Source of the DNA: Chelatococcus asaccharovorans | GTDB lineage: Bacteria > Pseudomonadota > Alphaproteobacteria > Rhizobiales > Beijerinckiaceae | Direction: 5' to 3' | DNA length: 64,000 nucleotides | NCBI RefSeq assembly: GCF_003201475.1 | Contig: NZ_QJJK01000002.1 | Coordinates: 248,001 to 312,000, forward strand | Shown: piece by piece, positions 4,188 to 34,702 of the stretch | Numbering within the stretch: the first letter of the stretch is position 1 | Layout: every line of letters begins with the position of its first letter | Notes under the pieces: model-generated | What the model was told of the DNA's origin: nothing | Seen by the model: the letters and a program-made list of their open reading frames with translations, nothing else | Databases searched by the model: none | Translations under genes and position numbers: made by a program

Positions 4188-4190
4188 CAG

Positions 4191-5801: not shown

Positions 5802-5927
5802 CAGCCGCACCATCTCCCTCTTTCACGGCGTGTCGTCCTGGCGTGCTGTCGTGCCCCGGCCGCGTTTCCCGGCAAGTTTGCGCCGGCTTGTAAAATCACG
5901 CCACTGAAATTGCGGGGGCCGGCGTTC

Positions 5928-6962
5928 CTAAGGGTTCACCGCCGGGTCACGCGCGTCGACCACGCCGCTGATGAGGTTGAGCCCGAGCAATCGGCGCGAA
6001 TCGAGGTCCGGCTGGGCGGGCTTCAACCGGCTCGCCAGGGCAGCGATGCGCGCGCGATACTGACGGGCGAGCCGGACAGCCTCCTCATGCGCGATGGCCC
6101 GGAACGTCACCTCGCTGCCGGGAACGCACTGCGCGAGACGATCGAGATCGGCACTGATCACCGTCGCGATCTTGGGATAGCCGCCGGTTGTCTGGCGGTC
6201 GCGCATCAGCACGATCGGCTGGCCATGGCCCGGGACCTGCACATGGCCGCAGACGATGCCGTCGGAGACGATATTGTGGCCGCGCGCGGCGATGAGCGCC
6301 GGCCCTTCCAGCTGATAGCCCATGCGGTCGATGCGCGCCGACACGCGGTAACACTCGCCGAGGAAGCGGGCGATGGTATCGGGCGCGAAATAGTCATCCT
6401 GCGGCCCGAGGACGACGCGGATCGGCCCGTCCGCACGAGACAGACCATCGGTCAGGCCATCGATCAGAACCTGGGGCGCGACATGTCCGGCCGCCGCACA
6501 GGGCAGGCGATCGCCGGCGGCCAGGGGGCGACCGACCATTCCCCCCATGCCCGAGCGGCGATGCAGCGCGATGCTGCCGAGTTCCGGCGCGACGTCGAAA
6601 CCACCCGCGACCGCCAGATAGGCAAAAAGCCCCGTGCGGCAGGGGCTCACGGTCAGCCTGTCCCCCTCACGCACCAGGGTGGAGGTGAACGGCGCCACGG
6701 GATGGCCTTGAACGGAGAGCGTCGCACCGCCACCGGCGAGCGATACCAGCAGAGGGCCGTCCGCGCAGGTCAGGGAACCTCCCTGCGCCATGAACTCGAC
6801 CGCGCCGGTCTCCGCGCCATTGCCGACGAGCACATTGGCAGCCGCGAGCGCCAATCGGTCCATCGCACCTGCCGGCGACACGCCGAAACGCTGGTAGCCA
6901 TACCGTCCCCCATCCTGAAAGGATGTTGCCGGCCCGCAGTCGCGCATCATGAGAGCGCTCAC
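5928..6962 (-). CDS. pxpC: Biotin-dependent carboxyltransferase-family protein, 5-oxoprolinase subunit C-like (KipA/YbgK)
   Basis: 344 residues of the PxpC/KipA family (allophanate-hydrolase subunit 2-like). The characteristic start CGPATSFQDGGRYGYQRFG is followed by GVSPAGAMDRLALAAAN, and by RDRQTTGGYPKIATV near residue 250. In known systems PxpC works with PxpB and PxpA to hydrolyse 5-oxoproline with ATP. Its ATG overlaps the pxpB stop by 4 bp (ATGA), so the two are coupled. No pxpA (LamB/YcsF) gene is present nearby; the next genes are acyl-CoA carboxylase subunits. It may therefore belong to a different ATP-dependent lactam or amide hydrolase, or use a pxpA elsewhere. Confidence 0.85.
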   Translation of the reverse strand: MSALMMRDCGPATSFQDGGRYGYQRFGVSPAGAMDRLALAAANVLVGNGAETGAVEFMAQGGSLTCADGPLLVSLAGGGATLSVQGHPVAPFTSTLVREGDRLTVSPCRTGLFAYLAVAGGFDVAPELGSIALHRRSGMGGMVGRPLAAGDRLPCAAAGHVAPQVLIDGLTDGLSRADGPIRVVLGPQDDYFAPDTIARFLGECYRVSARIDRMGYQLEGPALIAARGHNIVSDGIVCGHVQVPGHGQPIVLMRDRQTTGGYPKIATVISADLDRLAQCVPGSEVTFRAIAHEEAVRLARQYRARIAALASRLKPAQPDLDSRRLLGLNLISGVVDARDPAVNP

Positions 6963-7711
6963 GACGCCACCATGTCGGCAACCGGTTCGCCGGCAGCGGC
7001 CGCCTTGTCGAGCACCCGCCAGTGGTCCTCGGCGATGGGCTCAAACACGATTTCATCACCCGACGCGATGAGAAAGGCCGGATCGCGACCGGGATGGTAC
7101 GGCCGGACGGGCGTGCGGCCCAAGAGATGCCAGCCGCTCGGCCCTGCGATGGAGCTGATCGCAGCCTGGGCACCACCGATGATGACCGAACTCGCGGGTA
7201 TAAGCGGACGCGGGTCTGACCGCCGCGGCGTCGCGAGCCGGGGGTCGAGGCCGCCGAGATAGGTGAAGCCGGGCATGAAGCCGATCATGTAGACCCGATA
7301 GACGGGCGCGCAATGGGCGTCGATCAAAGCGGATGGCGAGAGGCCGTGCCGGGCTGCGACATCCGCGAGATCCACGCCGAATGCACCGCCATAGACAACC
7401 GGAATGCGCCACCGCCGCACGGCTTCGCCGGTGGGCGGCAAATTGGCCGCCATCGCCAGGAGATCGGCCGCGAGCGCTTCAGGATCCGCAATGACCGGAT
7501 CGATGTGGACGAGCAGCGAGCGATAGGTCGGCACCGTTTCGAGAACGCCGGCGACGGGGTGCGCCGTGAGCTCGGCATCCAGCGCCAGAACCTTGGCGTT
7601 GAGATCGGGATCGATCGTTTCCCCGAATTCGATCGTCAGCGCCGTATCGCCGCAGGGACGCACGCGCGGATAGGCGCCATGCCCTGCGGCCCCGCGGCTC
7701 TCGCGCCCCAT
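6959..7711 (-). CDS. pxpB: 5-oxoprolinase subunit B-like protein (KipI/YbgJ)
   Basis: About 250 residues of the PxpB/KipI (allophanate hydrolase subunit 1) family. It has RVRPCGDTALTIEFG at the start, ETVPTYRSLLVHIDP in the middle, and IGFMPGFTYLGGLDPRL with PRSDPR-like residues before a GWHLLGRTP C-terminal part. The frame is open further upstream, but the ATG at 7711 begins just before the conserved region and lies one base after the stop of the truncated LysR gene. It forms an operon with pxpC by a 4-bp overlap. Expected role: cytoplasmic partner of PxpC in ATP-dependent ring opening of 5-oxoproline or a similar lactam. Confidence 0.85.
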   Translation of the reverse strand: MGRESRGAAGHGAYPRVRPCGDTALTIEFGETIDPDLNAKVLALDAELTAHPVAGVLETVPTYRSLLVHIDPVIADPEALAADLLAMAANLPPTGEAVRRWRIPVVYGGAFGVDLADVAARHGLSPSALIDAHCAPVYRVYMIGFMPGFTYLGGLDPRLATPRRSDPRPLIPASSVIIGGAQAAISSIAGPSGWHLLGRTPVRPYHPGRDPAFLIASGDEIVFEPIAEDHWRVLDKAAAAGEPVADMVAS

Positions 7712-7712
7712 A

Positions 7713-8150
7713 TCACGCGCCCTGGTCGATGGGGGCGAGCCTCGCGCCCCTGCACATGGGCAACGCGACACGGCCACGCGCCGGAGCGGCGCCCACCACG
7801 GGAATGACCGTCAGGATGCCTGAACCCACACACATTTGGGCGCGACCGAGGGCGGTGATCGAAACGCCTGCACCCGCAGCCAGAAATCCCGCCAATACAT
7901 GCATGGAATTCGTCTCTATCATTGGCGTGCAGGTCAAACCCACGTCCTCCCGTGCCGCGTCGAAGATGGCCCGGCTGCCGCCAAAAGCTGTCGGGGCAGC
8001 GATAGGATAGTCCAGGGGGTCGCGCAAGATGCTCGCCCCGGCCATCCCGACAGCTGACGCGCGTGCCCTTACGACCGGGATCACCGGCACAAAGCCGGGG
8101 GATGACGCCAGCGATGTCTGGCGTCTCAATCCGAACGGAACGCTCTCGGG
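7713..8150 (-). pseudogene. Truncated LysR-family regulator, effector-domain remnant
   Basis: The open frame encodes part of a LysR substrate-binding domain: DPLDYPIAAPTAFGGSRAIF, then ETNSMHVLAGFLAAGAGVSI and RGRVALPMCRGARLAP. The N-terminal winged helix and first half of the effector domain are absent. Upstream, the same frame runs straight into the stop codon TAG (8151-8153) of the L,D-transpeptidase gene. The 3' end stops 1 bp before pxpB, so the original gene was probably the local regulator in front of pxpBC. A deletion removed its 5' part. The C-terminus is also about 20 residues shorter than usual. No plausible ATG exists before residue 30 of the fragment, and function is unlikely. 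Confidence 0.7.
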
Positions 8151-13840: not shown

Positions 13841-15376
13841 CTATTTGACCTCGGTGTCCTCGACGGTGATGCCCGACTGGAAGGTCAGGAAGCCCGGAAT
13901 ATTGGTGAAACCCTTGACGGTCTTGCGCAGGCCGAAGCTCTGGTCGCGCCACATCAGATAAACGAAAGGTGACAACTCGAGGGCGCGATCGACGAACTGG
14001 CCATAGATCTTCTCGCGCTCCGCGGGGTCGAGCGTCACACGGCCCTTGTCGAGCAATGCGTTGATCGTCGGATCGTCGAAATAGGCCGAGTTGTTCAGGC
14101 GCACGAGTTGCTTGCCGCCGTAGAAGAAATTGCTCAGCCAGTCCGCATCGGCGATATCGCCGGCGGTACCGGCCACCAGGAAGTCATAGTCGCCGGCGTT
14201 GTTCTTGGCGATGCGGCCGGACCAGTCCGGCAGGTCGAGCGTGACCTTGATGCCGATCTTGGCAAGTTCCGCCTGCACGGCAACGGCGGTGTTGTTGTGG
14301 AAGCCGTATTGCGAGGTCGACAGAAGCCGGGCCTGGAAGCCGTCGGGATAGCCAGCTTTCGCCAGGAGATCCTTGGCCTTCTGTATATTGTGGCTGAAGT
14401 AGTTCGCCTTGTCTTTGGAATAGCCGAGATAGCCTTCCGGAATGGCGATGCCGAACAGCGGCGTGCCGCGGCCGTTGAAGGCCGTGTTGATGATCGCCGA
14501 GCGGTCGATGGCATAGGCGATCGCCTGGCGCACTTCCGGCTTGGAGAACGGCTCGAACTTGGTGTTGAACTGCAACATCATGAACGGACCGGAGGTGCTC
14601 GCAAGCTTCAGATCGGGATTGGCCTCGATCGCGGCGGCATCCTTCCACGGCACGTAGTCGATGATGTCCACGTCGCCCGACTTCAGCGCATTCACGCGCG
14701 TGTTCTCGTCGCCGTAGAACACATAATGCACGTCATCGAGATGTGGCTTGCCCTGCTTGTAATAGCCGTCGAACTTTTCAACCGTGAGCTCGCGGCCACG
14801 CTCCCAGTTGGCGAATTTGAACGGCCCGGCGCCGATCGGGGTGGCGTTGGGATCGTTGGCATGCTGCTTGAGCCAGGCCGCCGGGACGATCGCCGATTCC
14901 GGCAGGGCGAGATAATGGATCAACGGCACGAACGGCTTCGCCAGCGTCAGCTTGACGGTCTTCGCATCAGGCGTTTCGATGGTGTCGATGATGCCGATTT
15001 CGTTCCGATAGGTTGCCTTGCTGTCGGGTGCCTTGATGCGCTCGAGCGATGCCTTGACGTCCGCGGCGGTCACCGGCGATCCGTCGTGAAATTTGGCGTC
15101 GCGCAGCTTGAAGGTATAGGTCAGCGCATCCGGCGAGACATCGTAGAACGCCGCCAGCTCGTTCGACAGCTTCCCGTCGGCGCCGTAATTGACGAGCCCG
15201 CGATGGATGGCCAGTCGAATGGTGCGCGCCGGCGTGCCGGCGTTGATGGTTGTGTCGAGCGTCGAAGGCTCGCCCGAGAGACCGAAATAGAGCGTGCCGC
15301 CGTCGGCCGCGAAGGCCTGGCTGATGGCAAGGCTCGATGCGAGCGCGAACAGCGCTCCCAGGACCCGCTTCTTCAT
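13841..15376 (-). CDS. ABC transporter substrate-binding protein, peptide/nickel/opine family 5 (DppA/OppA-like)
   Basis: Periplasmic binding protein of about 511 residues. A signal peptide (KKRVLGALFALASSLAISQA) is followed by the cluster-C fold: GGTLYFGLSGEPSTLD, FKLRDAKFHDGSPVTAADVK (the signature of family 5) and NTKFEPFSKPEVRQAIAYAI. The start at 15376 gives a proper signal peptide; the ORF extends 45 bases further upstream without support. It is the last gene of the operon hyuA-hyuB-frlB-frlD-ABC. Members of this family bind peptides, opines, glutathione and Amadori compounds; the neighbours point to a glycated amino acid. Confidence 0.9.
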   Translation of the reverse strand: MKKRVLGALFALASSLAISQAFAADGGTLYFGLSGEPSTLDTTINAGTPARTIRLAIHRGLVNYGADGKLSNELAAFYDVSPDALTYTFKLRDAKFHDGSPVTAADVKASLERIKAPDSKATYRNEIGIIDTIETPDAKTVKLTLAKPFVPLIHYLALPESAIVPAAWLKQHANDPNATPIGAGPFKFANWERGRELTVEKFDGYYKQGKPHLDDVHYVFYGDENTRVNALKSGDVDIIDYVPWKDAAAIEANPDLKLASTSGPFMMLQFNTKFEPFSKPEVRQAIAYAIDRSAIINTAFNGRGTPLFGIAIPEGYLGYSKDKANYFSHNIQKAKDLLAKAGYPDGFQARLLSTSQYGFHNNTAVAVQAELAKIGIKVTLDLPDWSGRIAKNNAGDYDFLVAGTAGDIADADWLSNFFYGGKQLVRLNNSAYFDDPTINALLDKGRVTLDPAEREKIYGQFVDRALELSPFVYLMWRDQSFGLRKTVKGFTNIPGFLTFQSGITVEDTEVK

Positions 15377-15426
15377 GATGCTACCCCTTGCTGGTGTTAT
15401 GGTTCCGCATGCTTGTTCCATGGCGG

Positions 15427-16263
15427 CTATTCCTCCCTGAGCCGTGGATCGAGGGTGTCGCGCAGCCGGTCTCCCAGGACGTTGATGGAGAGCACGGTCA
15501 GCGCGAGAAGAAGCGAAGGCCAGATCGCATACATCGGGTGCTGGCTGAGATAGCCGCGTGCCGTGCCGATCATCTGCCCCCAGGACGGCTCCGGCGGCAC
15601 GATGCCGAGACCGAGGAAGCTCAGGCCGGATTCGAGCAGGATGGCGGCCGCCACGGTCAGGGTCGCCTGCACGACCAGCGGCGACAGGATGTTCGGCAGG
15701 ATGGCGACACGCACCACGCGCTGCACCGAGGCGCCCATCGCGTGCTCGGCCTCCATGAATTCCTGCCGCGTGACCTGCAATGTCGCGGAATGGGCGACGC
15801 GGGCGAAATGCGGGATATAGAGAACGCCGATCACCACCGCGAGGCTGAAGACCCCGCTTTCCCAGAAGCCGACGGCAAGCAGCGCCAGCAGGATCGGCGG
15901 GAAGCTCAACATGATGTCGACGCCGCGCATGATGATGAACGACAGGGCCGGCCGGCTATAGGCCCCGGCGATGCCGAGGAGGGTTCCGAAAAAGCCGGCG
16001 ATCACCGTCGCCCCGATCGCCACCAGCATGGTCGGCCGCACGCCGATCAGAAGTCGGCTCAGGAGATCGCGGCCGAACTCATCGGTGCCGAGCCAATGCG
16101 CGGCGGAGCTGCCCTGGTTCACCGCGGACGGATTGATGGCGTAGGGGTTCTGCGGCGCGAGCCACGTGCCGAAGATGGCAACGAAGACAACCGCGCCCAG
16201 GATCGCAAGGCTCGCCGCGAAGGCCGGCTGGCTGCGCGATAGGCTGAGGAGCCTGCCCGTCAT
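15427..16263 (-). CDS. ABC transporter permease, DppC/OppC type
   Basis: 278-residue inner-membrane permease with about six membrane segments. It has the N-terminal extension typical of DppC (FGTWLAPQNPYAINPSAVNQ, then WLGTDEFGRDLLSRLLIGVR) and the EAA loop MEAEHAMGASVQRVVRVAIL followed by PNILSPL. Its start overlaps the stop of the DppB-type permease by 4 bp. It forms the membrane channel with that protein, energised by the fused ATPase of the same operon. Confidence 0.92.
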   Translation of the reverse strand: MTGRLLSLSRSQPAFAASLAILGAVVFVAIFGTWLAPQNPYAINPSAVNQGSSAAHWLGTDEFGRDLLSRLLIGVRPTMLVAIGATVIAGFFGTLLGIAGAYSRPALSFIIMRGVDIMLSFPPILLALLAVGFWESGVFSLAVVIGVLYIPHFARVAHSATLQVTRQEFMEAEHAMGASVQRVVRVAILPNILSPLVVQATLTVAAAILLESGLSFLGLGIVPPEPSWGQMIGTARGYLSQHPMYAIWPSLLLALTVLSINVLGDRLRDTLDPRLREE

Positions 16264-17237
16264 GAGCGCCTCCTGCGGATGCGCGGATCGAGCAGGCTGT
16301 AGAAGAGCTCGACGACCAGATTGATGAGGATGAACAAGGCAGCGATCGCCAGCATGGAACCCTGCACCAGCGGATAGTTGCGGGCGGAGACCGCGCTGAC
16401 GAGAAGCGTGCTGAGGCCCGGCCAGTTGAACATCGCCTCAACGAGGACGGTGCCACCCATCAGATTGCCGAGCTGCAGGCCGATGATCGTGACGATCGGA
16501 ATGGCCGCATTGCGCAGCACATGCTGCCAGATGATGCGATGCTCGGACATGCCCTTGGCCCGGAGCGCGCGCACGAAGTCACGGCCGAGGATCTCGAGCA
16601 TCGAGGAGCGGGTCATGCGCGCGATCGACGCGGCCAGGCCGAAGCCGAGCGCGAACGCCGGCAGGGCGAGCTTGCGGAAATGCTCGACCACGTTGCGCGA
16701 GATATCGGTATAGCCGCTCGCCGGCAGCCAGCCGAGCTGAATGCTGAAGAACAGCACGAGCAGCGTCCCCAGGATATAAACCGGAACCGAGATGCCGATC
16801 GTGGCGATCGAGGTCAGGACCGTGTCGCGCAGGGAACCGCGCTTCAGCGCCGCCGCAATCCCAAGCGGAACCCCGATCAGCGCCGCCACGATGATGGCGG
16901 CAAAAGCCAGTTCAAGCGTGCGCGGCAGGTTGCTCGTGACATATTTCGCAACCGGATAGCCGTTGGTCAGCGACTTGCCGAAGTCGAGATGCAGCGCGTT
17001 CCAGAGCCAGACGAAATACTGGCTGATCACCGGCTGGTCCAGGCCGAGCTGGCCGCGCATCGCGGCGACCGCCTCGGGCGAGGGGTTGCTCTCGGCGCCG
17101 AGCAGGAGCAGGACCGGATCTCCCGGCATGATATACATCACCGAGAAGATCAGCGTCGCGACCAGCCAAAGCTGGACGAAGGCCGTCAGCAGCTTGCGGC
17201 CCACGAGGACAAGAGCACCCGAAAGCGTCGCGTTCAT
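16260..17237 (-). CDS. ABC transporter permease, DppB/OppB type
   Basis: 325-residue permease. It has the DppB hallmarks IMPGDPVLLLLGAESNPSPE near the N-terminus, LGLDQPVISQYFVWLWNALH, and the EAA loop DFVRALRAKGMSEHRIIWQH followed by VLRNA. About six membrane segments. Its start overlaps the stop of the ATPase gene by 4 bp, as does its end with the DppC-type gene, so the three are translationally coupled. Confidence 0.92.
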   Translation of the reverse strand: MNATLSGALVLVGRKLLTAFVQLWLVATLIFSVMYIMPGDPVLLLLGAESNPSPEAVAAMRGQLGLDQPVISQYFVWLWNALHLDFGKSLTNGYPVAKYVTSNLPRTLELAFAAIIVAALIGVPLGIAAALKRGSLRDTVLTSIATIGISVPVYILGTLLVLFFSIQLGWLPASGYTDISRNVVEHFRKLALPAFALGFGLAASIARMTRSSMLEILGRDFVRALRAKGMSEHRIIWQHVLRNAAIPIVTIIGLQLGNLMGGTVLVEAMFNWPGLSTLLVSAVSARNYPLVQGSMLAIAALFILINLVVELFYSLLDPRIRRRRS

Positions 17238-18937
17238 GCCCGTCCCCTCCTCGCGCGCTCAGCGCCGACGGTGGGAACCGCATCGAGAAGAAGGCGCGTA
17301 TAGGCGTGCTGCGGCGCCGCGAAAATCGCCTCGGCAGGTCCTGCCTCGACGATGCGTCCCTTCTGCATGACGGCGATCGTGTCACTGATGTGCTCGACCA
17401 CCGACAGGTCGTGCGAAATGAAGAGATAGGTCAGGTCGAACTCAACCTGCAGGTCCTTGAGCAGGTTCAGGACCTGCGCCTGGACCGACACATCGAGTGC
17501 CGAGACGGCTTCATCGCAGATGACGAGCGACGGCTTGAGCGCGAGCGCGCGGGCAACCGCGATGCGCTGGCGCTGGCCGCCGGAGAACTCATGCGGATAT
17601 TTGGCGGCCGCTGCGCGCGGCAGGCCGACGGCGTCGAGCAGTTGCAGAACATGCTTGCTGCGCTCGGCCGGCGTGCCCTCCTCGAAGATCGCCAGGGGAG
17701 CCCCGATCAGGTCCGCCACAGTCTGCCGCGGGTTCAAGGAGCCATAGGGGTTCTGGAAGACCATCGCGATCTCGCGGCGGAACGGACGCATGGCCCGCTC
17801 GGACAGCCGCGCGATATCCTGGCCCTTGAACAGGATCTGCCCGGAATCGGGATTGGACAGGCGCATGATCGCCCGCGACAGCGTCGTCTTCCCGCAGCCG
17901 GACTCGCCGACGAGCCCCAGGGTCGTGCGCGGCGCGATCGAGAAGCTCACACCGTCCACCGCATGCATGGCGACGGCAGCCGCCAGCGGCGTCGGCTTCA
18001 CCCAATAGGACTTGCGCAGGTCCTTGAGCTCGAGAAGCGGGTGCGGATCAACCGCAACCGGCACGTCGCCCCCGGCTGGCCGCGTGCGCGGCTGCGGCCT
18101 GACGCTGCGGACATTGCCCGCCGCGTCCCGCTCGATAACGGGCAGGCGCTCCTGCCGCAGCCCGAGCGACGGCATGGAGTCGATCAGCGCCTTGGTATAG
18201 TCGTTCTGGGGATTGGTGAAGAGGTCAGGGGTGGCCGCCTCCTCCATCAGTTCGCCGGCATACATGACGGCGACGCGATCGGCGACTTCATAGATCACGC
18301 CGAGATCATGGGTGATCAACAGGATGGCGGCGCCGACTTCCGCGTTGAGCCCACGCAACAGGTCCAGCACCTGCTTCTGGACGGTCACGTCCAGCGCCGT
18401 GGTCGGCTCGTCGGCGATGATGATGCGCGGCTTGCAGGACACCGCCATCGCGATCATGACCCGCTGGCATTGCCCGCCCGAGAGCTCATGCGGAAAGGCA
18501 CGCATGCAACGGGCCGGATCCGGGATATGGACCTTCTCCAGGAGCGCGAGGGCTTTGCGGCGGGCGGCCGCCTTGCCGATGCGCTCATGCAGCAGGATCG
18601 CCTCGACGATCTGGTCGCCGCAGGTGAAGATGGGGTCCAGCGATGCCATCGGGTCCTGGAAGATCATCGCCACATGGCCGCCGCGCAGCCTGCGCAATTC
18701 GGCCGGCGTGCACTTGATGAGGTCCACGCCGTCGACCAGCACCTCACCGCGCGTGACAACGGCGTTCGGCGGCAACAGACCCATGACGCCGAGCGACGTG
18801 AGGGTCTTGCCGCTGCCGCTCTCCCCGACCAGGCCGAGGATCTCACCGGGCCTGATGGTGAAGCTGACGTCACGCACGGCGGGTTTGAGACCCGCTGCGG
18901 TCTTGAAAGCGATGGAGAGGTTCCTGATCTCGAGCAT
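17234..18937 (-). CDS. Fused double ATP-binding protein of a dipeptide-type ABC transporter
   Basis: 567 residues containing two ATPase domains, equivalent to DppD plus DppF in one chain (GsiA-like). First domain: Walker A GESGSGKTLTSL, signature LSGGQCQR, Walker B IIIADEPTTALD. Second domain, from about 290: Walker A GESGCGKTTLSR, signature FSGGQRQRIAVARALA, Walker B LVICDEAVSALD. The first domain ends with the oligopeptide-transporter C-terminal motif. It drives uptake through the two permeases that follow. The gene starts 12 bp after the sugar kinase stop. Confidence 0.92.
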   Translation of the reverse strand: MLEIRNLSIAFKTAAGLKPAVRDVSFTIRPGEILGLVGESGSGKTLTSLGVMGLLPPNAVVTRGEVLVDGVDLIKCTPAELRRLRGGHVAMIFQDPMASLDPIFTCGDQIVEAILLHERIGKAAARRKALALLEKVHIPDPARCMRAFPHELSGGQCQRVMIAMAVSCKPRIIIADEPTTALDVTVQKQVLDLLRGLNAEVGAAILLITHDLGVIYEVADRVAVMYAGELMEEAATPDLFTNPQNDYTKALIDSMPSLGLRQERLPVIERDAAGNVRSVRPQPRTRPAGGDVPVAVDPHPLLELKDLRKSYWVKPTPLAAAVAMHAVDGVSFSIAPRTTLGLVGESGCGKTTLSRAIMRLSNPDSGQILFKGQDIARLSERAMRPFRREIAMVFQNPYGSLNPRQTVADLIGAPLAIFEEGTPAERSKHVLQLLDAVGLPRAAAAKYPHEFSGGQRQRIAVARALALKPSLVICDEAVSALDVSVQAQVLNLLKDLQVEFDLTYLFISHDLSVVEHISDTIAVMQKGRIVEAGPAEAIFAAPQHAYTRLLLDAVPTVGAERARRGRA

Positions 18938-18949
18938 CGCGCCTCCGCC

Positions 18950-19840
18950 TCACGTCAGCGTTTCGGCGTCGATGGGCGCGGCATGGCCGAACGCACCCTC
19001 GATCCGGCAGATCCGCGCCGCGAACTGGGCGCCATGGCCGAGCGCCGCGCGCAGGACATCCGGCGGCGGACGCATCCCCCGGCGCCAGCCGGAGGCGATG
19101 AGCGCCAGCATAGTGGCCGTTATGAAGGCGTCACCGGCGCCGAGCGTATCCACCACGTCCGTCGGCTCCGGCACGACCGTGATGAAGTGCTCACCATCAT
19201 AGGCGATCGCGCCCTCTGCGCCGAGCGTCGCCAGGGCGAGGCCACAGCCCTGGGCCACGGTCTCGCGCAGCGCGAGCATCGCGCGCTCGCGACCGACGTC
19301 CCCGGCCGACAGCGCCGCGAAATCGAGATGAGGAGCGACCGGGGCAATCAGATCATCCACCTGCCAGCGGTAGGAGAAGTCGTAGGACAGGAGCGCGCAG
19401 GCCGGACGCAGCACAGCGAGCTGCGGATTGAGGTGGCTGTAGCAGCTCGTATGTACCAGCGCGAAGGTCGCGAGATAGTCGAGATCGGCCGCATCCGGCA
19501 CGAAGGGATGTTCGCGCGCGACGCCGCCCCGGTTGGAGAACACGAACTCGCGGTTTCCGTCGACGATCCGCACATCCGCATGGCCGTTCGCGCCTTCGAC
19601 GACACGGCAATGCGGGGTCGGTATCGCGAGAGCCTCGAGCGTGTCCCGGACATGGCGGGCCGCCCGGTCCGTTCCAAACGTCCCGAGATAGGCTGCGTCG
19701 GCGCCGAGCATCTTCGCATAGGCCGCGAAATTCAGCGCATTGCCGCCGGGATACATGACCCCAGCGTTGAGATAGCGATCGACGACATTGTCGCCGAGCC
19801 CCAGCACCCGCAACCCGCGCAGCTCGTCACGTCCGGTCAT
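18950..19840 (-). CDS. frlD: PfkB-family sugar kinase, fructoselysine 6-kinase (FrlD)-like
   Basis: 296-residue ribokinase-fold kinase. It starts LGLGDNVVDRYLNAGVMYPG then GNALNFAAYAKMLGADAAY, matching the GDN.vD.Y and GGNA.N.A form of FrlD rather than plain ribokinases. It has LLSYDFSYRW and PHLDFAALSAGD as in FrlD, and the catalytic anion-hole motif DTLGAGDAF near residue 233. Known FrlD phosphorylates carbon 6 of fructoselysine, after which FrlB splits it. Its partner FrlB-like gene is directly upstream. AGGAGG precedes the start at a good distance. The amino acid part of the natural substrate is not known. Confidence 0.85.
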   Translation of the reverse strand: MTGRDELRGLRVLGLGDNVVDRYLNAGVMYPGGNALNFAAYAKMLGADAAYLGTFGTDRAARHVRDTLEALAIPTPHCRVVEGANGHADVRIVDGNREFVFSNRGGVAREHPFVPDAADLDYLATFALVHTSCYSHLNPQLAVLRPACALLSYDFSYRWQVDDLIAPVAPHLDFAALSAGDVGRERAMLALRETVAQGCGLALATLGAEGAIAYDGEHFITVVPEPTDVVDTLGAGDAFITATMLALIASGWRRGMRPPPDVLRAALGHGAQFAARICRIEGAFGHAAPIDAETLT

Positions 19841-19954
19841 GCCGGCCTCCTGACCGCTGGTCGAAGAGGCAGGCGCCCGCCCGCAAGCCGCTGTCCACGC
19901 GATGCGGCATGCGCGCGCGGTGGTCCGGCAAGAGTGCTGGCGGGCGCTTCGCCA

Positions 19955-21010
19955 TCAGTAATCGACCTTCCACATATAGCGGCGCACCGAGAGCGGATGC
20001 TCGCGCAGCACCGAAAGCGTATGGGCGAACCAGTACCAGGTGACGCCGATGACGAAAGGCGACAGAAGCGGCGATACGTCCTCGTAGCGGCCGGCGTCGA
20101 AGGTGATGATCTTGTCCGTCACGCGGCGGGTGAATTTCAGCGCGCGCTGGTCGATCTTGCGGTTCTCGCCATTGTCCATGAGGAAGATATAGGCCATGTC
20201 CGCGTCGGCGACCTCGAATGGCCCGTGGCGGAACTCGCCGGAATGGATGTCGGAGGCGTCGAGCCACAGCATCTCGTTGAAGATGCAGATCGAATACTGG
20301 TAGTTGAGCGCCGAGAGAATGCCGCTAGAAAGAACATAATAGATGTTCTCGTCCTTGTAGCGGCGGGCGAGCTCCATGCCGCGCTCGCGCTCGGCATCCT
20401 TGATCTCGTGCAGGCGGGCCGGCATTGCCTCGAGGTCGCGCAGAAGACGCGCACCAACCGGATTGCCGAGATATTTCAGGAGATGCGCCGCGAAGAGATA
20501 GGCGACCAGGGTCTTCGGCATGCCCGGCAGTTCACGGCTGTAGGGCAGCAGGTGATCGCAGATCTTGGCCAGCCCGCTCTCATGGCCCGACGTCAGGGCG
20601 ACAGTGACCGCGCCGGTCGTCTTGGCCCAGCGCGCGGCAACAACGGTGTCTTCGGTCTCGCCGTTATGCGAGGTGAGCAGCACCACGGCCTTCTCGTTGA
20701 CGGGCTTGGGGCGCCGTGTCTCGAACTCCGTCGCATTGATGCGCTCGATGCGCAGATCACAGTATTTGTCGAGGATATACTTGACGGGCTCAATGTAGGA
20801 ATTGGAGCCGCCGGCGCCGACGAGATAGACGGATTCGATCTCGCGCGACGAGAAGATCGCGTTCACGAGCGTCTCGGCGACCGGGTTGCCGTCGCGGAAC
20901 GCCATCTCCAGGACGCCCTTGAGATAGTCCCCCTCCAGATAGTTGGGATTGGGCGCAGACTTGATCTCTGCGTCGCTCGGCGTCAGGTTTTCGAGGGCCA
21001 TGTCAGTCAT
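19955..21010 (-). CDS. frlB: SIS-domain deglycase, fructosamine-6-phosphate deglycase (FrlB/FraB)-like
   Basis: 351 residues with two SIS domains. The phosphosugar-binding motif SHNGETEDTV lies near residue 115, the first SIS strand YLVGAGGSNSYIEPVKYIL near 62, and DIHSGEFRHGPFEVADADMA near 255, matching the E-x-x-HGP(F)E stretch of FrlB. FrlB-type enzymes convert 6-phosphofructosyl-amines to glucose 6-phosphate and the free amine. Its ATG overlaps the hyuB stop by 4 bp. Together with the kinase this makes a complete two-step deglycation route. A general glucosamine-6-P isomerase-type SIS is less likely, given the kinase partner. Confidence 0.85.
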   Translation of the reverse strand: MTDMALENLTPSDAEIKSAPNPNYLEGDYLKGVLEMAFRDGNPVAETLVNAIFSSREIESVYLVGAGGSNSYIEPVKYILDKYCDLRIERINATEFETRRPKPVNEKAVVLLTSHNGETEDTVVAARWAKTTGAVTVALTSGHESGLAKICDHLLPYSRELPGMPKTLVAYLFAAHLLKYLGNPVGARLLRDLEAMPARLHEIKDAERERGMELARRYKDENIYYVLSSGILSALNYQYSICIFNEMLWLDASDIHSGEFRHGPFEVADADMAYIFLMDNGENRKIDQRALKFTRRVTDKIITFDAGRYEDVSPLLSPFVIGVTWYWFAHTLSVLREHPLSVRRYMWKVDY

Positions 21011-22641
21011 TCTCCAGAGGCTTCAGGTCGGGACGCGCGACCGAAGCCACCACCGCCCGGCGTTTGCAGGAACAGGCTGTCCCCGCGGTTCATGAGGATG
21101 TTGGTGATCGAGATGTCGTATTCGGTTGTCTTGCCGTCCACCGTCCCGAACTTGAGATGGGCCACCTCGCCGGCGCCGCCGCCGAAAACGCCGTCCGCGG
21201 GCGTCCGCAGACCCTCGCTGGAGGCATTGGCGCGGATGCCGTCGGTCATCGCGACGACCTCGCGGATGATGCCCATGCCGCCGACGGTATGCCCCTCGCC
21301 GCCCGAGCCATCGGCCAGCGCGTAGCGGCGGACCATGAGCGGATATTCGATCTCGAGCGCCTCGGCCGGCAGGTTCGACGTATTGGTGATATGCACCTGG
21401 ATGCCGTTCATCCCGTCATGGGTCAGGCTCGCGCCCGCGCCGCCCCCCACCGTCTCGAGATAGACGAAGTTGCCTTCACGCATCTTGTGCGGGCCGAAGA
21501 AGATCATCGTCGCATTCATGTCGGCGGACGAGGCGAAGACCTTTTCCTTCGGCAGGACATCGGCGAAGGCCTGGAAGATCGCACGCACAACCCGCTGGCA
21601 ACTCGTGGAGCGGATGCCGACGGCGGCCGGGAACTTCGGCCGTACGAGCGTGCCCTCCTCCGCCACGATGGTGACGGGAAGCGCCATGCCCTCGTTCGGC
21701 GGCAGCGTCGGGTCGAGCAGGGCCTTGATGGTGTAGTAGCAGGTGGCATCAAGCGCCGTCTTCGGGATGTTGACGGCGCCGCGCGCCTGCACGTCGGTGC
21801 CGGTGAAGTCGAAGGTGATGCCGTCCTCCTCGACCTTGATGGCGACCTGGATACGGCAGGGCTCATGGCCCACGCCGTCGCCATCGATGAAGGCCTCGCC
21901 GGTGTAGACCCCGTCCGGCAGGTCCTTGATGCGCTTGCGCAGACGGCTTTCCGAATAGGCGATGAGATCGTCGACCGCCCTCTCGACCGTCGCGATGCCG
22001 AACTGGTCGGCGAGCGCCACCAGCTTGCGCCGGCCGATCTCGTTGGTGGCGATCTGCACCTTGAGATCCAGCACGCGCTCCAGCGGATCGCGGCTGTTGG
22101 TGCTGATCAGCTTGACGATCTGCTCGTCGAGCACGCCTTCGCGCGCGATCTTCAATACGGGGATGCGCAGGCCCTCGGCGAAGATGCTGGTCTGGCTCGG
22201 ATCGCAGGAGCCCGGCACGCCGCCGCCGACGTCGGAATGATGGCCGAGATTGGCTGCGAAGAAGCAAAGCCGCCCGTCGTGGAAGACCGGCGTCAGAATG
22301 GAGATGTCGGGCGTATGCGAACCGCCGGCGAGATAGGGATCGTTGCAGATGAAGGCGTCACCCGGCCGGATGTCCTCGGGCTTGAAATTCTCCAGCACCG
22401 CGGCCACGCCGCCCTGGAGCGAGCCGAGATGCACGGGGATGTGCGAGGCCTGCACGATCAGGCGGCCCTTGCCGTCGAACAGGCCGACGGAGCAGTCCTT
22501 GCGCTCCTTGATATTGGTGGAGAAGGAGGAGCGGACGAGGCTGAGGCCCATCTCGTCGGTGATCGACATGAACCGGTTGGAGTAGACCTCCATCTCGATG
22601 GCGTCGAACTCGCGCGGAGGCTTGACGTGCTGCTGCATCAC
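21007..22641 (-). CDS. Hydantoinase B / oxoprolinase family protein (HyuB)
   Basis: 544 residues of the HyuB family. It has MEVYSNRFMSITDEMGLSLV at the start, CNDPYLAGGSHTPDISILTP and FFAANLGHHSDVGGGVPGS (the metal- and substrate-contacting GHH..DVGG segment), and NIPKTALDATCYYTIKALLD. The usual C-terminal GGGFG is present (FLQTPGGGGFG). With HyuA it should perform ATP-dependent hydrolysis of a cyclic or linear amide (hydantoin, 5-oxoproline and similar). It overlaps hyuA by 4 bp upstream and the deglycase gene by 4 bp downstream, so it belongs to the same operon and most likely the same pathway. Confidence 0.9.
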   Translation of the reverse strand: MMQQHVKPPREFDAIEMEVYSNRFMSITDEMGLSLVRSSFSTNIKERKDCSVGLFDGKGRLIVQASHIPVHLGSLQGGVAAVLENFKPEDIRPGDAFICNDPYLAGGSHTPDISILTPVFHDGRLCFFAANLGHHSDVGGGVPGSCDPSQTSIFAEGLRIPVLKIAREGVLDEQIVKLISTNSRDPLERVLDLKVQIATNEIGRRKLVALADQFGIATVERAVDDLIAYSESRLRKRIKDLPDGVYTGEAFIDGDGVGHEPCRIQVAIKVEEDGITFDFTGTDVQARGAVNIPKTALDATCYYTIKALLDPTLPPNEGMALPVTIVAEEGTLVRPKFPAAVGIRSTSCQRVVRAIFQAFADVLPKEKVFASSADMNATMIFFGPHKMREGNFVYLETVGGGAGASLTHDGMNGIQVHITNTSNLPAEALEIEYPLMVRRYALADGSGGEGHTVGGMGIIREVVAMTDGIRANASSEGLRTPADGVFGGGAGEVAHLKFGTVDGKTTEYDISITNILMNRGDSLFLQTPGGGGFGRASRPEASGE

Positions 22642-24683
22642 GCACGACCCTTCACAAACTTGAGGATGATGTTGCCGTAGGCGTCGACGACGCCCTCCTG
22701 GTCGGGAAGCACATAAGCCGTCGAGGTCAGTTCCTCGATAATGGCCGGCCCGGAGAAGGCCTCGCCCTGGGGCATCAGCGCGCGCTTGTAGACCGGCAGG
22801 GTCAGCCAGCCGCGCTCGGGGCCGACATAGACCTCCCGCTCACCCACCTTGGCCGCGGCGATGGAGCCCGTCGCGCTGGCCACCGTCTGCAGCGGGCGAC
22901 CGGCATGGCCGATGGCCTGGACGCGCAGGTTGACGATCTCGACCGGATGATCGTCGAGTGCATAGCCGTAGACCACTTTATGCGCCTCGGCGAAGCGGGC
23001 CGCGAAATCCTGGGCCGTGGTGAGCACGCCTTCCACGCGGATCTCGTGGTTCTGGCCGGCGTAGCGGGCTTCCACGATATGCTGCAAGGCGCGCTTGTCA
23101 TCGGGAATGGTCTCGGCCTCCAGCCATGCGCTAGCCTGTTCTTCCAGCGCGGCGACAGCCGACGTGATCTCTTCCCAGCTTTCGCCTTCCGCGCGCTTGA
23201 TCTGGGTGGAGACGAAGTCGCGCGTGACGTCGGACAACAGCACGCCGCGCGCGCACATGGTGCCCGGCGATTCCGGGATGATCACGGTCTCGAGCCCGGT
23301 CTCGGCCGCCACCAGCGCGGCGTGCAGCGGGCCTGCGCCGCCGAAGGCCATCAAGGCGAACTGCTTGAGGTCATGGCCCTTGTCCATGGACACGGCCCGG
23401 ATCGCCCGCGCCATATTGGCCACCGCGATGCGGATGATGCCCCAGGCCGTATCCTCGACACTGCGGCCGATCTTCTCGGCGACCGCGCTGACCGCCTTGA
23501 GTGCGGCCTCGCGATCGACCGGCATGGCGCCGTCGAGCAGGGCGACGGGGTTGAGCCGCTGCAGGACGATATTGGCGTCGGTGATGGTCGCCTCCGTGCC
23601 GCCCTTGCCATAGGCAGCCGGGCCGGGGACGGCGGCTGCGCTTTGCGGGCCGACCTTGAGGCCACCGGCATCGTCGAGCCAGGCGATGGAGCCGCCGCCG
23701 GCGCCGATCACGCTGACGTCGACCATGGGACAGCGGATGGAATAGCCCGCCACGTCGCGGTCGGCGGAATAGGCCGGCTTGCCGCCCGCGATCAGCGCGA
23801 CGTCGGTGGACGTGCCGCCGACGTCATAGGTGATGATGTCGGGGAAGGCGGCAGCCTTGCCGACGAGGGCCGCGCCGACGACGCCGGCCGCCGGGCCGGA
23901 CAGGCAGGTGCGCACGGGATAGTTGCGCGCCGTCTCGGTCGACATCAGGCCGCCGTTCGAATGGATGGTGTAGGGCTTTGCCTCGACGCCGGTCTTGCGC
24001 GACCGCTTCATGAAGCGGTCGAGATAGCCATCCATGCGCGGCATCAGATAGGCGTTCATCACCGTGGTGGAGATGCGCTCGTATTCGCGGAACTCGGGCA
24101 GCACGTCGCTCGACAGGCTGATGAAGACGTCGGGCAGGAATTCCCGGATGATCGCCGCGGCGCGCTGCTCATGCGCCGGGTTGCGATAGGCATGCAGGAA
24201 GCCGATCGCGATGGCCTCGACCTCCTCTTGCCTGAAGCGGCGCGCGGCAGTCGCCACGCCGTCCTCGTCAAGGGGCAAGATCACCGCGCCATCCGGGCCG
24301 AGACGCTCGGTGACTTCGAGGCGCAGGGCGCGCGCCACCAGCGGGTCGGGCTTGCGCACGCTCATGTCGAACAGATCCGGCCGGGTCTGGCGGCCGATCT
24401 CCAGCACGTCGCGGAACCCTTCCGTGGTCAGGAGACCCGTCCTGCCGCCCCGACGTTCGATGACCATGTTGGTCGCGACGGTGGTGCCGTGGCCGAAATG
24501 CACGACGTCGGCAGCCGACAGCCCGCGCTCGGGGAAGCTTGCGATGCCGGTCTCGATGGCCTCGGACGGATCATGCGGCGTCGATGACACCTTGAAATGG
24601 CGCATGGCGCCCGTTTCGTCGTCGAGCACGGTGAAATCCGTGAAGGTTCCGCCGACGTCGATGCCAACCCTGATAGTGCCCAT
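22638..24683 (-). CDS. Hydantoinase A / oxoprolinase family protein (HyuA)
   Basis: 681-residue HyuA-family ATPase subunit. An ASKHA-type phosphate loop VGIDVGGTFTDFTVLDDETG opens the protein; then FGHGTTVATNMVIERRG, SGPAAGVVGAALVGK, the second phosphate motif YDVGGTSTDVALIAGG, and AFGGAGPLHA. ATP is thought to activate the amide carbonyl while HyuB completes hydrolysis. The start at 24683 (MGTIRVGID) is preferred over an upstream in-frame ATG because it fits the family. It is the first gene of the operon, facing a LysR gene across 148 bp. Acetone carboxylase beta is a relative, but the short length and neighbours favour a hydrolase. Confidence 0.9.
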   Translation of the reverse strand: MGTIRVGIDVGGTFTDFTVLDDETGAMRHFKVSSTPHDPSEAIETGIASFPERGLSAADVVHFGHGTTVATNMVIERRGGRTGLLTTEGFRDVLEIGRQTRPDLFDMSVRKPDPLVARALRLEVTERLGPDGAVILPLDEDGVATAARRFRQEEVEAIAIGFLHAYRNPAHEQRAAAIIREFLPDVFISLSSDVLPEFREYERISTTVMNAYLMPRMDGYLDRFMKRSRKTGVEAKPYTIHSNGGLMSTETARNYPVRTCLSGPAAGVVGAALVGKAAAFPDIITYDVGGTSTDVALIAGGKPAYSADRDVAGYSIRCPMVDVSVIGAGGGSIAWLDDAGGLKVGPQSAAAVPGPAAYGKGGTEATITDANIVLQRLNPVALLDGAMPVDREAALKAVSAVAEKIGRSVEDTAWGIIRIAVANMARAIRAVSMDKGHDLKQFALMAFGGAGPLHAALVAAETGLETVIIPESPGTMCARGVLLSDVTRDFVSTQIKRAEGESWEEITSAVAALEEQASAWLEAETIPDDKRALQHIVEARYAGQNHEIRVEGVLTTAQDFAARFAEAHKVVYGYALDDHPVEIVNLRVQAIGHAGRPLQTVASATGSIAAAKVGEREVYVGPERGWLTLPVYKRALMPQGEAFSGPAIIEELTSTAYVLPDQEGVVDAYGNIILKFVKGRA

Positions 24684-24793
24684 GATGATGCGGCTTCGTC
24701 TTTCCGGCGGCCGGGACAGCCGCCCTCTCCGTTGATCACCCACACTGTAGGAGGGGCTTCCCTATCCCGTAAAATTCAATTATTCGAGCTTTC

Positions 24794-24810
24794 CATTCCA
24801 TAATGGAATG
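24794..24810. promoter_or_regulatory. Perfect 17-bp palindrome CATTCCAT-A-ATGGAATG, probable LysR box
   Basis: It contains T-N11-A (TTCCATAATGGAA), the classic LysR half-site geometry. It sits between divergent hyuA and lysR, and overlaps the first of three ATG codons just upstream of the preferred lysR start. Confidence 0.65.
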
Positions 24811-28213: not shown

Positions 28214-28290
28214 GTGTGCGGACGCGAATAGCGACCTTCGCACATGCGGCAAGCGACTGGAAAATTTGAAGCCGCCACCCAGCGAGGGTG

Positions 28291-28307
28291 TTGGCACGCT
28301 CCCTGCC
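28291..28307 (+). promoter_or_regulatory. Sigma-54 promoter of acxABC
   Basis: TTGGCACGCTCCCTGCC matches TGGCACG-N4-TTGC closely, with GG at 28293-28294 and GC at 28305-28306 exactly 10 bases apart. The start site is expected near 28318, about 40 bases before the acxA GTG. Confidence 0.85.
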
Positions 28308-28358
28308 CTCCTTTTGATACCGGCTCGTCAGAGGCCGACCTCACAAAGGAGGACGCTC

Positions 28359-30512
28359 GTGAACATCCATACGCCCACCGAAAGAAGCGTGCAGGTGCTC
28401 GGCATCGATGCCGGCGGCACCATGACCGATACCTTTTTTGTCGATTCCGACGGTGATTTCGTCGTCGGCAAGGCCCAGAGCACCCCGCAGAACGAGGCGC
28501 TCGGCCTGATCGCCTCCAGCGAGGACGGCCTCGGAGCCTGGGGCCTGTCGCTCGATGCAGCGCTGAAGCAGCTCCAGACCGGCGTCTATTCCGGCACCGC
28601 GATGCTCAATCGTGTGGTCCAGCGCAAGGGATTGCGGTGCGGCCTCATCGTCAATCGCGGCATGGAGGATTTCCACCGCATGGGCCGGGCGATCCAGGCC
28701 TATCTCGGCTACGCCTATGAAGACCGCATCCACCTCAACACCCATCGCTATGATCCGCCGCTGGTGCCGCGCAACCTGACGCGCGGCGTCATCGAGCGTG
28801 TCGACATGTCGGGGACGGTCGTCATCCCCCTGCGGGAGGAGACCGCGCGTGAAGCGGCGCGCGAACTGATTGCGGCCGATGTCGAAGGCATCGTCATCAG
28901 CCTGCTGCATTCCTACAAGAACCCCGATCACGAACGCCGGGTGCGCGATATCGTGACGGAAGAAATCGCAGAAAGCGGCAAGTCGATCCCGGTCTTCGCC
29001 TCCGCGGATTACTATCCCGTGCGCAAGGAAACGCATCGCACGAACACGACTATTCTCGAGGGTTATGCGGCCGAGCCATCACGCCAGACGCTGAAGAAGA
29101 TCTCCGACGCCTTCAAGGAGCATGGCACGAAGTTCGACTTCCGGGTGATGGCGACGCACGGCGGCACGATCTCCTGGAAAGCCAAGGAGCTCGCCCGCAC
29201 CATCGTCTCCGGGCCGATCGGCGGCGTCATCGGCGCCAAATATCTCGGCGAGGTGCTGGGCTACAACAACATCGCCTGTTCCGACATCGGCGGCACATCC
29301 TTCGACGTGGCCCTGATCACCCAGGGCGAACTGACGATCAAGAACGATCCGGACATGGCGCGGCTCGTCTTGTCGCTGCCTCTCGTCGCCATGGACTCGG
29401 TCGGTGCCGGCGCCGGATCCTTCATCCGGCTCGATCCCTATACCAAGGCGATCAAGCTCGGCCCGGACTCGGCCGGTTACCGGGTCGGCGTCTGCTGGAA
29501 GGAAAGCGGCATCGAAACGGTGACGATCTCCGACTGCCACATGGTGCTCGGCTATCTCAACCCGGACAACTTCCTCGGTGGCGCGGTGAAGCTCGACCGG
29601 CAGCGCTCGGTTGATGCCATCAAGGTACAACTCGCCGATCCGCTCGGTCTCTCCGTCGAAGATGCGGCGGCCGGCGTCATCGAACTGCTCGATTCCGACC
29701 TGCGCGACTACCTGCGCTCGATGATCTCCGGCAAAGGTTACTCGCCCCAGAGCTTCGTGTGCTTCTCCTATGGCGGGGCCGGACCCGTCCACACCTATGG
29801 CTATACGGAAGGGCTCGGTTTCGAGGACGTCATCGTCCCGGCCTGGGCGGCCGGCTTCTCGGCCTTCGGCTGCGCTGCGGCTGATTTCGAGTATCGCTAC
29901 GACAAGTCGCTCGACATCAACCTCGCGCCGGATGCGCCAGCCGCGCAACGCGAAGCTGCAGCAAAGACATTGCAAGCCGCATGGGAGGAATTGACCAGGA
30001 ACGTGCTCGAGGAATTCAAGCTCAACGGCTACGAACCTGAGCAGGTGACACTGACTCCCGGCTACCGCATGCAGTATCGCGGCCAGCTCAACGACCTCGA
30101 GATCGAATCGCCGCTCGGCAATGCCGGCACGGCCGATGATTGGGAGCAACTCCAGGACGCGTTCAACGCCACCTATGGCCGCGTCTATGCCGCCTCGGCG
30201 CGCTCGCCCGAACTCGGCTATTCCGTGACTGGCGCCATCATGCGCGGCGCGGTGCCGATCCCCAAGCCGAAGATCCCGAAGGAGCCGCTCGAAGGCGAGA
30301 CCCCGCCCGAGGACGCAAAAACCGGCACACGCAAGTTCTACCGCAAGAAGCGCTGGGTCGATGCACAGCTCTACCGCATGGAGGCCCTGCGCCCGGGCAA
30401 CCGTGTCACCGGTCCCGCAATCATCGAATCCGACGCCACCACCTTCGTCGTTCCCGACGGCTTCGAGACCTTCCTGGACGGACATCGCCTCTTCCACCTG
30501 AGGGAAGTCTGA
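28359..30512 (+). CDS. acxA: Acetone carboxylase beta subunit
   Basis: HyuA-family subunit of the alpha2-beta2-gamma2 acetone carboxylase, which binds ATP and phosphorylates acetone/bicarbonate on the way to acetoacetate. From the GTG at 28359 it has 717 residues (about 78 kDa, the size known for this subunit). The phosphate loop is LGIDAGGTMTDTFFVDSDG at 14-32; the second ASKHA motif is CSDIGGTSFDVALITQGE; the C-terminal part ends EAL-rich with RPGNRVTGPAIIESDATTF. AAGGAGG lies 6 bases before the GTG, which decides the start although the frame is open to 28266. It follows the sigma-54 promoter and is first in the operon acxABC. Confidence 0.93.
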   Translation: MNIHTPTERSVQVLGIDAGGTMTDTFFVDSDGDFVVGKAQSTPQNEALGLIASSEDGLGAWGLSLDAALKQLQTGVYSGTAMLNRVVQRKGLRCGLIVNRGMEDFHRMGRAIQAYLGYAYEDRIHLNTHRYDPPLVPRNLTRGVIERVDMSGTVVIPLREETAREAARELIAADVEGIVISLLHSYKNPDHERRVRDIVTEEIAESGKSIPVFASADYYPVRKETHRTNTTILEGYAAEPSRQTLKKISDAFKEHGTKFDFRVMATHGGTISWKAKELARTIVSGPIGGVIGAKYLGEVLGYNNIACSDIGGTSFDVALITQGELTIKNDPDMARLVLSLPLVAMDSVGAGAGSFIRLDPYTKAIKLGPDSAGYRVGVCWKESGIETVTISDCHMVLGYLNPDNFLGGAVKLDRQRSVDAIKVQLADPLGLSVEDAAAGVIELLDSDLRDYLRSMISGKGYSPQSFVCFSYGGAGPVHTYGYTEGLGFEDVIVPAWAAGFSAFGCAAADFEYRYDKSLDINLAPDAPAAQREAAAKTLQAAWEELTRNVLEEFKLNGYEPEQVTLTPGYRMQYRGQLNDLEIESPLGNAGTADDWEQLQDAFNATYGRVYAASARSPELGYSVTGAIMRGAVPIPKPKIPKEPLEGETPPEDAKTGTRKFYRKKRWVDAQLYRMEALRPGNRVTGPAIIESDATTFVVPDGFETFLDGHRLFHLREV

Positions 30513-34559: not shown

Positions 34560-34702
34560 AGAATTATCAGAATGGACGTGCGATCGCGCGCCGCGAAGGC
34601 CGGGGCTCGCACGGCTTGCACCATGAACGAAACGGGCCGCCCGGCACGCGCCGGAGGGAGTGGGATGCTGCCTGCGCCATCATTCGGGACCGAATAAGAC
34701 TC

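What the first reader, a model, noticed from the sequence alone, without database searches (positions are those of the whole stretch)
13841..24683. Amadori-compound operon with a built-in ATP-dependent amide hydrolase
A FrlD-like kinase, a FrlB-like deglycase and a dipeptide/opine-type ABC importer are in one operon with HyuA and HyuB, all with 4-bp overlaps or short gaps between the enzymes, and an OccR-like LysR facing it. Fra/Frl loci of enterobacteria add an asparaginase (FraE) to the same kinase-deglycase core; here a HyuAB enzyme would take that place. A glycated amino acid that cyclises to a lactam, such as fructosyl-glutamine turning into a fructosyl-pyroglutamate, would need ring opening. 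The combination is not one I know as described.
Basis: inference. Interest (0 to 1): 0.78.

Follow-up and report, generated by a model that had tools for sequence, protein, structure and literature searches.

The report
Operon for eating a sugar-pyroglutamate lactam
This operon looks like a complete pathway for importing and digesting a glycated amino acid that has closed into a ring, with an ATP-driven enzyme that appears to open the ring before the sugar is removed.

Summary
A minus-strand operon (13841-24683) encodes HyuA, HyuB, a FrlB-like deglycase, a FrlD-like kinase and a four-part ABC importer; a LysR gene faces it. The same nine genes in the same order occur in 13 of 14 related genome loci and on the chrysopine-type Ti plasmid pTiChry5. 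The binding protein's closest solved relative is AgaA, named for agropinic acid, a lactam of a sugar-glutamate conjugate (ligand recalled). AgaA falls inside this operon's own SBP clade. This HyuA groups with copies that, in 4 of 5 loci, sit beside opine-oxidase-like genes. HyuAB appears to have joined kinase-deglycase pairs at least twice. Nothing here is shown biochemically. HyuAB as opener of lactam opines is already in print for other opines, and I recall that the pTiChry5 paper, which I could not read, notes Amadori-opine genes. So it is a new variant of a known kind with a directly testable substrate. The 'OccR-like' label is not supported beyond the LysR family.

The parts
22638..24683 (-). 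HyuA-like ATPase subunit of an ATP-dependent lactamase (longest ORF starts at 24743; the MGTIRVG start at 24683 is more likely)
   Evidence: Pfam Hydant_A_N, Hydantoinase_A, Hydant_A_C; best NCBIfam caprolactamase alpha 576 bits, below cut-off 1000; PDB 7hk5, 6yra
21007..22641 (-). HyuB-like metal-binding subunit
   Evidence: Pfam Hydantoinase_B 577 bits; counterparts of the CapB metal ligands Asp41, His99, Asp102, His124 present
19955..21010 (-). FrlB-like SIS-domain deglycase
   Evidence: NCBIfam fructoselysine-6-P deglycase 134.9 bits, below cut-off 430; PDB 3eua E 3.6e-49; Glu246 and His262, 16 apart
18950..19840 (-). FrlD-like PfkB kinase
   Evidence: NCBIfam fructoselysine 6-kinase 161.5 bits, below cut-off 247; DTLGAGD motif, Asp237
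17234..18937 (-). fused double ATPase of an Opp/Dpp-type importer
   Evidence: Two ABC_tran stretches, oligo_HPY; 64% identical to the octopine-Ti counterpart
16260..17237 (-). importer permease 1
   Evidence: BPD_transp_1; 74% to the octopine-Ti counterpart
15427..16263 (-). importer permease 2
   Evidence: BPD_transp_1, OppC_N; 75% to the octopine-Ti counterpart
13841..15421 (-). AgaA-family periplasmic substrate-binding protein
   Evidence: SBP_bac_5; PDB 6hlx AgaA E 3.4e-240, next best 9.2e-64; 69% to the octopine-Ti AgaA
24832..25779 (+). divergent LysR regulator (longest ORF from 24808; the conserved start and GGAGG fit 24832)
   Evidence: HTH_1 and LysR_substrate; 87-91% identical in the operons L002-L013, 67% in L015; start read
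24769..24809 (.). conserved intergenic element with palindrome ATTCCATAATGGAAT (24795-24809), likely LysR operator and promoter region
   Evidence: Alignment of 9 chosen loci; coordinates; both palindrome arms exact in 7 of 9 rows, imperfect in L005 and L015

Best explanation
It is an inducible operon for uptake and breakdown of a lactam Amadori compound, most likely N-(1-deoxyfructosyl)-5-oxoproline (fructosyl-pyroglutamate, recalled as the opine dfop). The AgaA-type importer brings in the lactam. HyuAB uses ATP to open the ring, giving fructosyl-glutamate. The FrlD-like kinase makes fructosyl-glutamate-6-phosphate. The FrlB-like deglycase splits it to glucose-6-phosphate and glutamate. Ring opening should come before deglycation, because an amide nitrogen cannot easily form the Schiff-base intermediate. 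LysR senses the substrate or an intermediate and acts at the ATTCCA-N3-TGGAAT element. Shown: gene content, order, conservation, families, active-site residues, trees. Inferred: substrate, reaction order, regulation.
For: Nine-gene unit in 13 of 14 loci and on pTiChry5. Importer: the SBP hits AgaA at 801 bits against 219 for the next PDB protein; the octopine-Ti SBP encoded near HyuAB shows no difference from 6hlx AgaA in the alignment as printed (485 residues) and falls inside the operon's SBP clade (p-AU 0.025 against a clade without it). HyuA groups (100*) with five copies, four of which lie beside opine-oxidase-like genes. HyuA near the deglycase in 19 of 32 family places against about 1.5 expected, and in 6 of 21 order/class places against about 1.0; in 24 of these 25 all four genes are on one strand. 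Catalytic residues of deglycase, kinase and HyuB kept. No AgaE-like oxidase in the fetched stretches of type-A loci, so here the sugar would leave by kinase and deglycase. Fructosyl-pyroglutamate is reported in honey, and a derivative in broccoli.
Against: No biochemical or growth data. Deglycase and kinase miss the NCBIfam cut-offs for the fructoselysine enzymes, and the type-A deglycase has a very long stem branch, so its substrate could differ. 13 of the 32 family places, and 15 of the 21 order/class places, have no HyuA nearby: kinase-deglycase pairs commonly do without it. HyuA genes are plentiful (19 of full length in this genome), and the HyuA clade of types B and C also holds two copies without a deglycase beside them, one from the window's own genome (L064). 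Of 10 plasmid records at least 99% identical in the pTiChry5 T-DNA-side SIS gene, 6 hold the operon, one a remnant and three none found. 16 of 17 type-B loci also carry an AgaE-like oxidase, so HyuAB there may serve agropinic acid; the window's genome has a 41% AgaE-like gene elsewhere (L070). The AgaA ligand, the opines of chrysopine tumours and the roles of AgaE-G are recalled, not read.
Confidence: 0.7

Rival explanations
1. A fructosyl-amino acid operon in which HyuAB is a plain 5-oxoprolinase: it clears free pyroglutamate that arises from released glutamine, not the sugar-bound lactam.
For: HyuAB homologues include 5-oxoprolinases (passages); glutamine cyclises spontaneously (general knowledge).
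Against: The genome already has a fused HyuA-HyuB oxoprolinase-like gene (L079, frame of 1202 aa), and the window has CT_A_B and CT_C_D genes. The importer is AgaA-type. This HyuA groups with copies mostly beside opine-oxidase-like genes.
Confidence: 0.12
2. The substrate is another cyclised sugar-amino acid conjugate: a spirolactone such as chrysopine, a fructosyl lactam of another amino acid, or a mannityl lactam (agropinic acid).
For: AgaA-type importer; pTiChry5 is chrysopine-type.
Against: No AgaE-like oxidase for mannityl compounds in the fetched type-A stretches; HyuAB enzymes are known for lactams rather than lactones (general knowledge); pTiChry5 has two other apparently Amadori-type gene sets beside this one.
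Confidence: 0.13
3. HyuAB is a hydantoinase for unrelated hydantoins and only shares the operon with fructosamine genes.
For: The HyuA family is large and mixed.
Against: 4-bp overlaps, conservation across bacterial families and recurrence in other layouts.
Confidence: 0.05

Closest known systems
aga region of the octopine-type Ti plasmid (NC_002377; locus L017)
   Same: AgaA importer (SBP 69%, permeases 74-75%, ATPase 64% identical) together with HyuA (47%) and HyuB (39-40%)
   Different: A FAD oxidase takes the place of kinase and deglycase; its HyuA belongs to another clade. The names AgaE-G and their roles are recalled; the record shows no such names.
Ti plasmid pTiChry5, region beside trb
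   Same: The same nine genes in the same order, 68-93% identical
   Different: There it lies on a tumour plasmid beside two other apparently Amadori-type gene sets. The window lies at 248001-312000 of contig C2, 628558 bases long, of a genome in the same family group as one matching Microvirga zambiensis.
frl/fra fructosamine operons (E. coli, Bacillus, Salmonella)
   Same: Kinase then deglycase; fra also adds an amide hydrolase, FraE (PMC9609667, passage)
   Different: FraE is a periplasmic asparaginase; here an ATP-dependent, presumably cytoplasmic HyuAB; cut-offs for the fructoselysine enzymes not met
HyuAB proposed for lactam opines on pTiEU6 and pTiS4/pTiAB2-73
   Same: HyuAB suggested to open lactam opines (passages)
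   Different: Proposed there for succinamopine lactams and rideopine lactam, not for a fructosyl lactam
Caprolactamase CapAB
   Same: ATP-dependent lactam opening; metal ligands kept
   Different: CapB's hydrophobic pocket looks more polar here (Leu38 to Glu, Val386 to Tyr, Cys411 to His), as in most of the homologues aligned

Membership tests
FrlB/FraB-type deglycase | NCBIfam equivalog cut-off (PRK11382, 430 bits) | tested here: not met
   134.9 bits
FrlB/FraB-type deglycase | SIS-domain relative with Glu and His 16 residues apart (roles of these residues recalled) | tested here: met
   Glu246/His262; loose pattern in 58 of 58 rows; 3eua E 3.6e-49
FrlD-type kinase | NCBIfam cut-off (PRK09813, 247 bits) | tested here: not met
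   161.5 bits
FrlD-type kinase | PfkB GAGD motif | tested here: met
   pattern met by 56 of 58 rows, the other two read DTCGAGD
ATP-dependent HyuAB lactamase/oxoprolinase | HyuA and HyuB Pfam domains in adjacent genes | tested here: met
ATP-dependent HyuAB lactamase/oxoprolinase | four metal ligands of CapB | tested here: met
   present in all 26 homologue rows chosen for alignment with CapB; that 6yra_B is CapB is inferred from matching residue numbers
ATP-dependent HyuAB lactamase/oxoprolinase | ATP-dependent ring opening | not testable with these tools
   needs an enzyme assay
aga (agropinic acid) operon | AgaA-family importer | tested here: met
aga (agropinic acid) operon | AgaE-like FAD oxidase (role recalled) | tested here: not met
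   no hit at E 1e-15 over 250 residues in the window or the fetched type-A loci
fra locus | FraE asparaginase | tested here: not met
   no asparaginase among the operon's Pfam hits
dfop opine catabolism | growth on or conversion of fructosyl-5-oxoproline | not testable with these tools
   needs bench work

The most novel reading that the evidence does not exclude
Degradation of Amadori lactams by kinase, deglycase and HyuAB is a widespread soil pathway assembled more than once, and agropinic-acid uptake on octopine Ti plasmids was derived from it: AgaA is a branch inside the importer clade of these operons. Part of crown-gall opine catabolism would then descend from ordinary rhizosphere use of cyclised glycated glutamine.
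Probability: 0.4. Interest if true: 0.75.

Novelty: new variant of a known kind. Interest (0 to 1): 0.6.

Why it matters
It gives a concrete gene set for breaking down a cyclised glycated amino acid, a compound reported from plant products and (as recalled) a crown-gall opine whose pathway I found assigned in none of the passages that I read. It ties two enzyme kinds together in one route, and suggests that tumour-plasmid opine uptake was recruited from a common soil pathway.

Tried and rejected
Rejected: chance adjacency (19 of 32 places against about 1.5 expected; the expectation uses this genome's HyuA density and the stretch length, a rough model, and the genomes are related). Not supported: OccR-like regulator. 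The Tistrella LysR (45%) stands before FAD oxidases and an amino-acid transporter, with no HyuAB, kinase or deglycase annotated in the stretch. Rejected as a discriminating test: the T-DNA-side SIS gene, since it is also 99% identical on NC_010929, which the operon search did not return. Group C is weak: in L085 HyuAB lies 4.8 kb away on the other strand, and L082 and L083 have a 1.4-kb gap and an AgaE-like oxidase. 'At least twice' is the simplest reading of the trees; one old pairing with HyuA replaced and lost is not excluded, and the deep branches of the deglycase tree have only 81-90% support.

Rows left out: of 56 further deglycase places in the order and class searches (own and already fetched places not counted) 21 were fetched and 35 not examined. 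One search used 47 of the 74 HyuA rows (duplicates and near-copies dropped by hand; one fused protein cut to 700 residues). Searches dropped duplicate and near-copy loci. Trees were 'quick' except those. One search aligned 26 chosen rows; one search looked at 73 HyuB rows, where the first ligand is Asp in 72, the second His in 73, the third Asp in 72; its fourth position was one residue off and is not used. The motif count used a wrong spacing and returned 0 of 58; one search repeats it with a loose pattern. Structure prediction was not run.

Literature searches: (15 papers with at least 3 of 4 terms; 'hydantoinase' counted 0 in all 15). No passage that I read describes this combination; most papers in the lists were seen as listings only, and most subscription papers are not held.
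Full report
Observation. The window holds a tight minus-strand operon: HyuA, HyuB, FrlB-like deglycase, FrlD-like kinase, fused ATPase, two permeases and a family-5 binding protein, with a LysR gene in divergent orientation.

Conservation. A scan of one genome per species for near relatives of the deglycase returned 14 loci (it needs exact short peptide words, so it finds close relatives). 13 of 14 (L002-L013, L015) carry all nine genes in the same order. L015, from an uncultured bacterium, is only 55-84% identical. L003 and L004 look like chrysopine-type plasmid copies, so the 13 are not all independent. The exception, L014 (Allorhizobium borbori), keeps the deglycase and importer but shows only distant kinase (33%), HyuA (43%) and HyuB (38-39%) copies downstream, near a gene that by eye looks GntR-like.

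Ti plasmids. In the plasmid collection 10 of 471 records with a deglycase match are 90-95% identical: six Agrobacterium plasmids and four Neorhizobium megaplasmids. pTiChry5 carries the whole operon between its trb genes and an FAD-oxidase/amino-acid-transporter set, with a further SIS-kinase set nearby. Chry5 is described as chrysopine-type (PMC6733357, passages). N-fructosyl pyroglutamate is also reported from buckwheat honey (passages), and a derivative is listed for broccoli (passage).

Importer. The SBP's closest solved protein is 6hlx AgaA, 801 bits against 219 for the next. The octopine Ti plasmid's SBP, encoded near a HyuAB pair, shows no difference from AgaA over 485 aligned residues as printed. 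In the SBP tree AgaA lies inside the type-A operon clade, with L015 outside (98*; 96/94). Forcing type A together without AgaA costs 9.7 log-likelihood units, p-AU 0.025, a test chosen after the tree was seen. Permease 1 gives the same branching, 93/90. That AgaA binds agropinic acid, a mannityl-pyroglutamate, is recalled.

HyuAB. Type-A HyuA groups at 100* with five copies. Four of these neighbour FAD oxidoreductases and (2Fe-2S) proteins, as opine oxidases do by recall; the fifth stands near a molybdopterin oxidoreductase. HyuA copies of types B and C group instead with the octopine-Ti HyuA (100*), together with two copies without a deglycase in the fetched stretch, L053 and, from the window's own genome, L064. 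The HyuB metal ligands are present in all 26 rows chosen, and the pocket looks more polar than CapB's (ligand numbers from PMC8453981, passages). In print, HyuAB has been suggested to open lactam opines on pTiEU6 (PMC6733357) and on pTiS4/pTiAB2-73 (PMC8554961).

Recurrence. Deglycase matches at E 1e-20: 32 of 397 family genomes, 46 of 397 order genomes, 3 of 385 class genomes, own genome included each time. All 32 family places outside the window's own genome were fetched; 19 have HyuA in the stretch, about 1.5 expected, and 13 have none. Of 56 further places 21 were fetched; 6 have HyuA, about 1.0 expected, and 15 have none. In 24 of these 25 loci all four genes lie on one strand. Layouts: type A as in the window; type B deglycase-kinase-HyuA-HyuB (17 loci); type C HyuA-HyuB, gap, deglycase-kinase (L082, L083; L085 is doubtful). 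The deglycase tree puts A, B and C in separate clades with HyuA-less clades between, though the deep forks have 81-90% support. The simplest reading is that the pairing arose at least twice. An important qualification: 16 of 17 type-B loci and 2 of 3 type-C loci also carry an AgaE-like oxidase, 54-60% identical, so there HyuAB may serve mannityl lactams too. The fetched type-A loci have none.

Mechanism and limits. The cleanest reading of type A is import of the lactam, HyuAB opening, phosphorylation and deglycation to glucose-6-phosphate and glutamate. Ring opening before deglycation is a chemical inference. The conserved 24769-24809 element with its ATTCCA-N3-TGGAAT palindrome (exact in 7 of 9 chosen rows) is a likely LysR site. 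Deglycase and kinase fall short of the NCBIfam cut-offs for the fructoselysine enzymes, so they are FrlB/FrlD-like rather than members of those equivalogs.

Papers. Passages only were read of PMC4231840, PMC6733357, PMC10410297, PMC8554961, PMC12632257, PMC8262997, PMC6683767, PMC9609667, PMC8453981, PMC12114437, PMC13205324 and PMC6341043. Not read, recalled only: Chilton 1995, Lyi 1999, Baek 2003, Shao 2018 and the AgaA structure paper.

Noticed in passing
window 28266-30512 and 47640-51622 (+): Two further HyuA genes in the window, the second with a HyuB; the genome shows 19 HyuA matches of about full length.
   Followed up: partly
window 2313-7777 (-): Biotin carboxylase and carboxyltransferase genes next to CT_A_B and CT_C_D genes (KipA/KipI or PxpBC likeness recalled); the first two are about 77-80% identical at DNA level on Rhizobium plasmids.
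   Followed up: no
L014 / L080 (Allorhizobium borbori): Type-A deglycase and importer without LysR, HyuAB and kinase beside them; a distant kinase-HyuA-HyuB set lies just downstream, and an upstream ORF looks transposase-like by eye.
   Followed up: partly
L103 22264-22551 (pTi_CFBP5481): Only short fragments matching the operon (3% of it) were found, among them part of a binding-protein gene near IS66 genes.
   Followed up: no
L025-L028, L033, L034, L037-L044, L094, L098: Type-B loci combine an AgaE-like oxidase, HyuAB, kinase-deglycase and, in 15 of these 16, an AgaA-like SBP, as if one locus handled both mannityl and fructosyl lactams.
   Followed up: partly
window 34616-40599 (+): Flavin and molybdopterin subunits of xanthine-dehydrogenase-type enzymes, two large subunits.
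   Followed up: no
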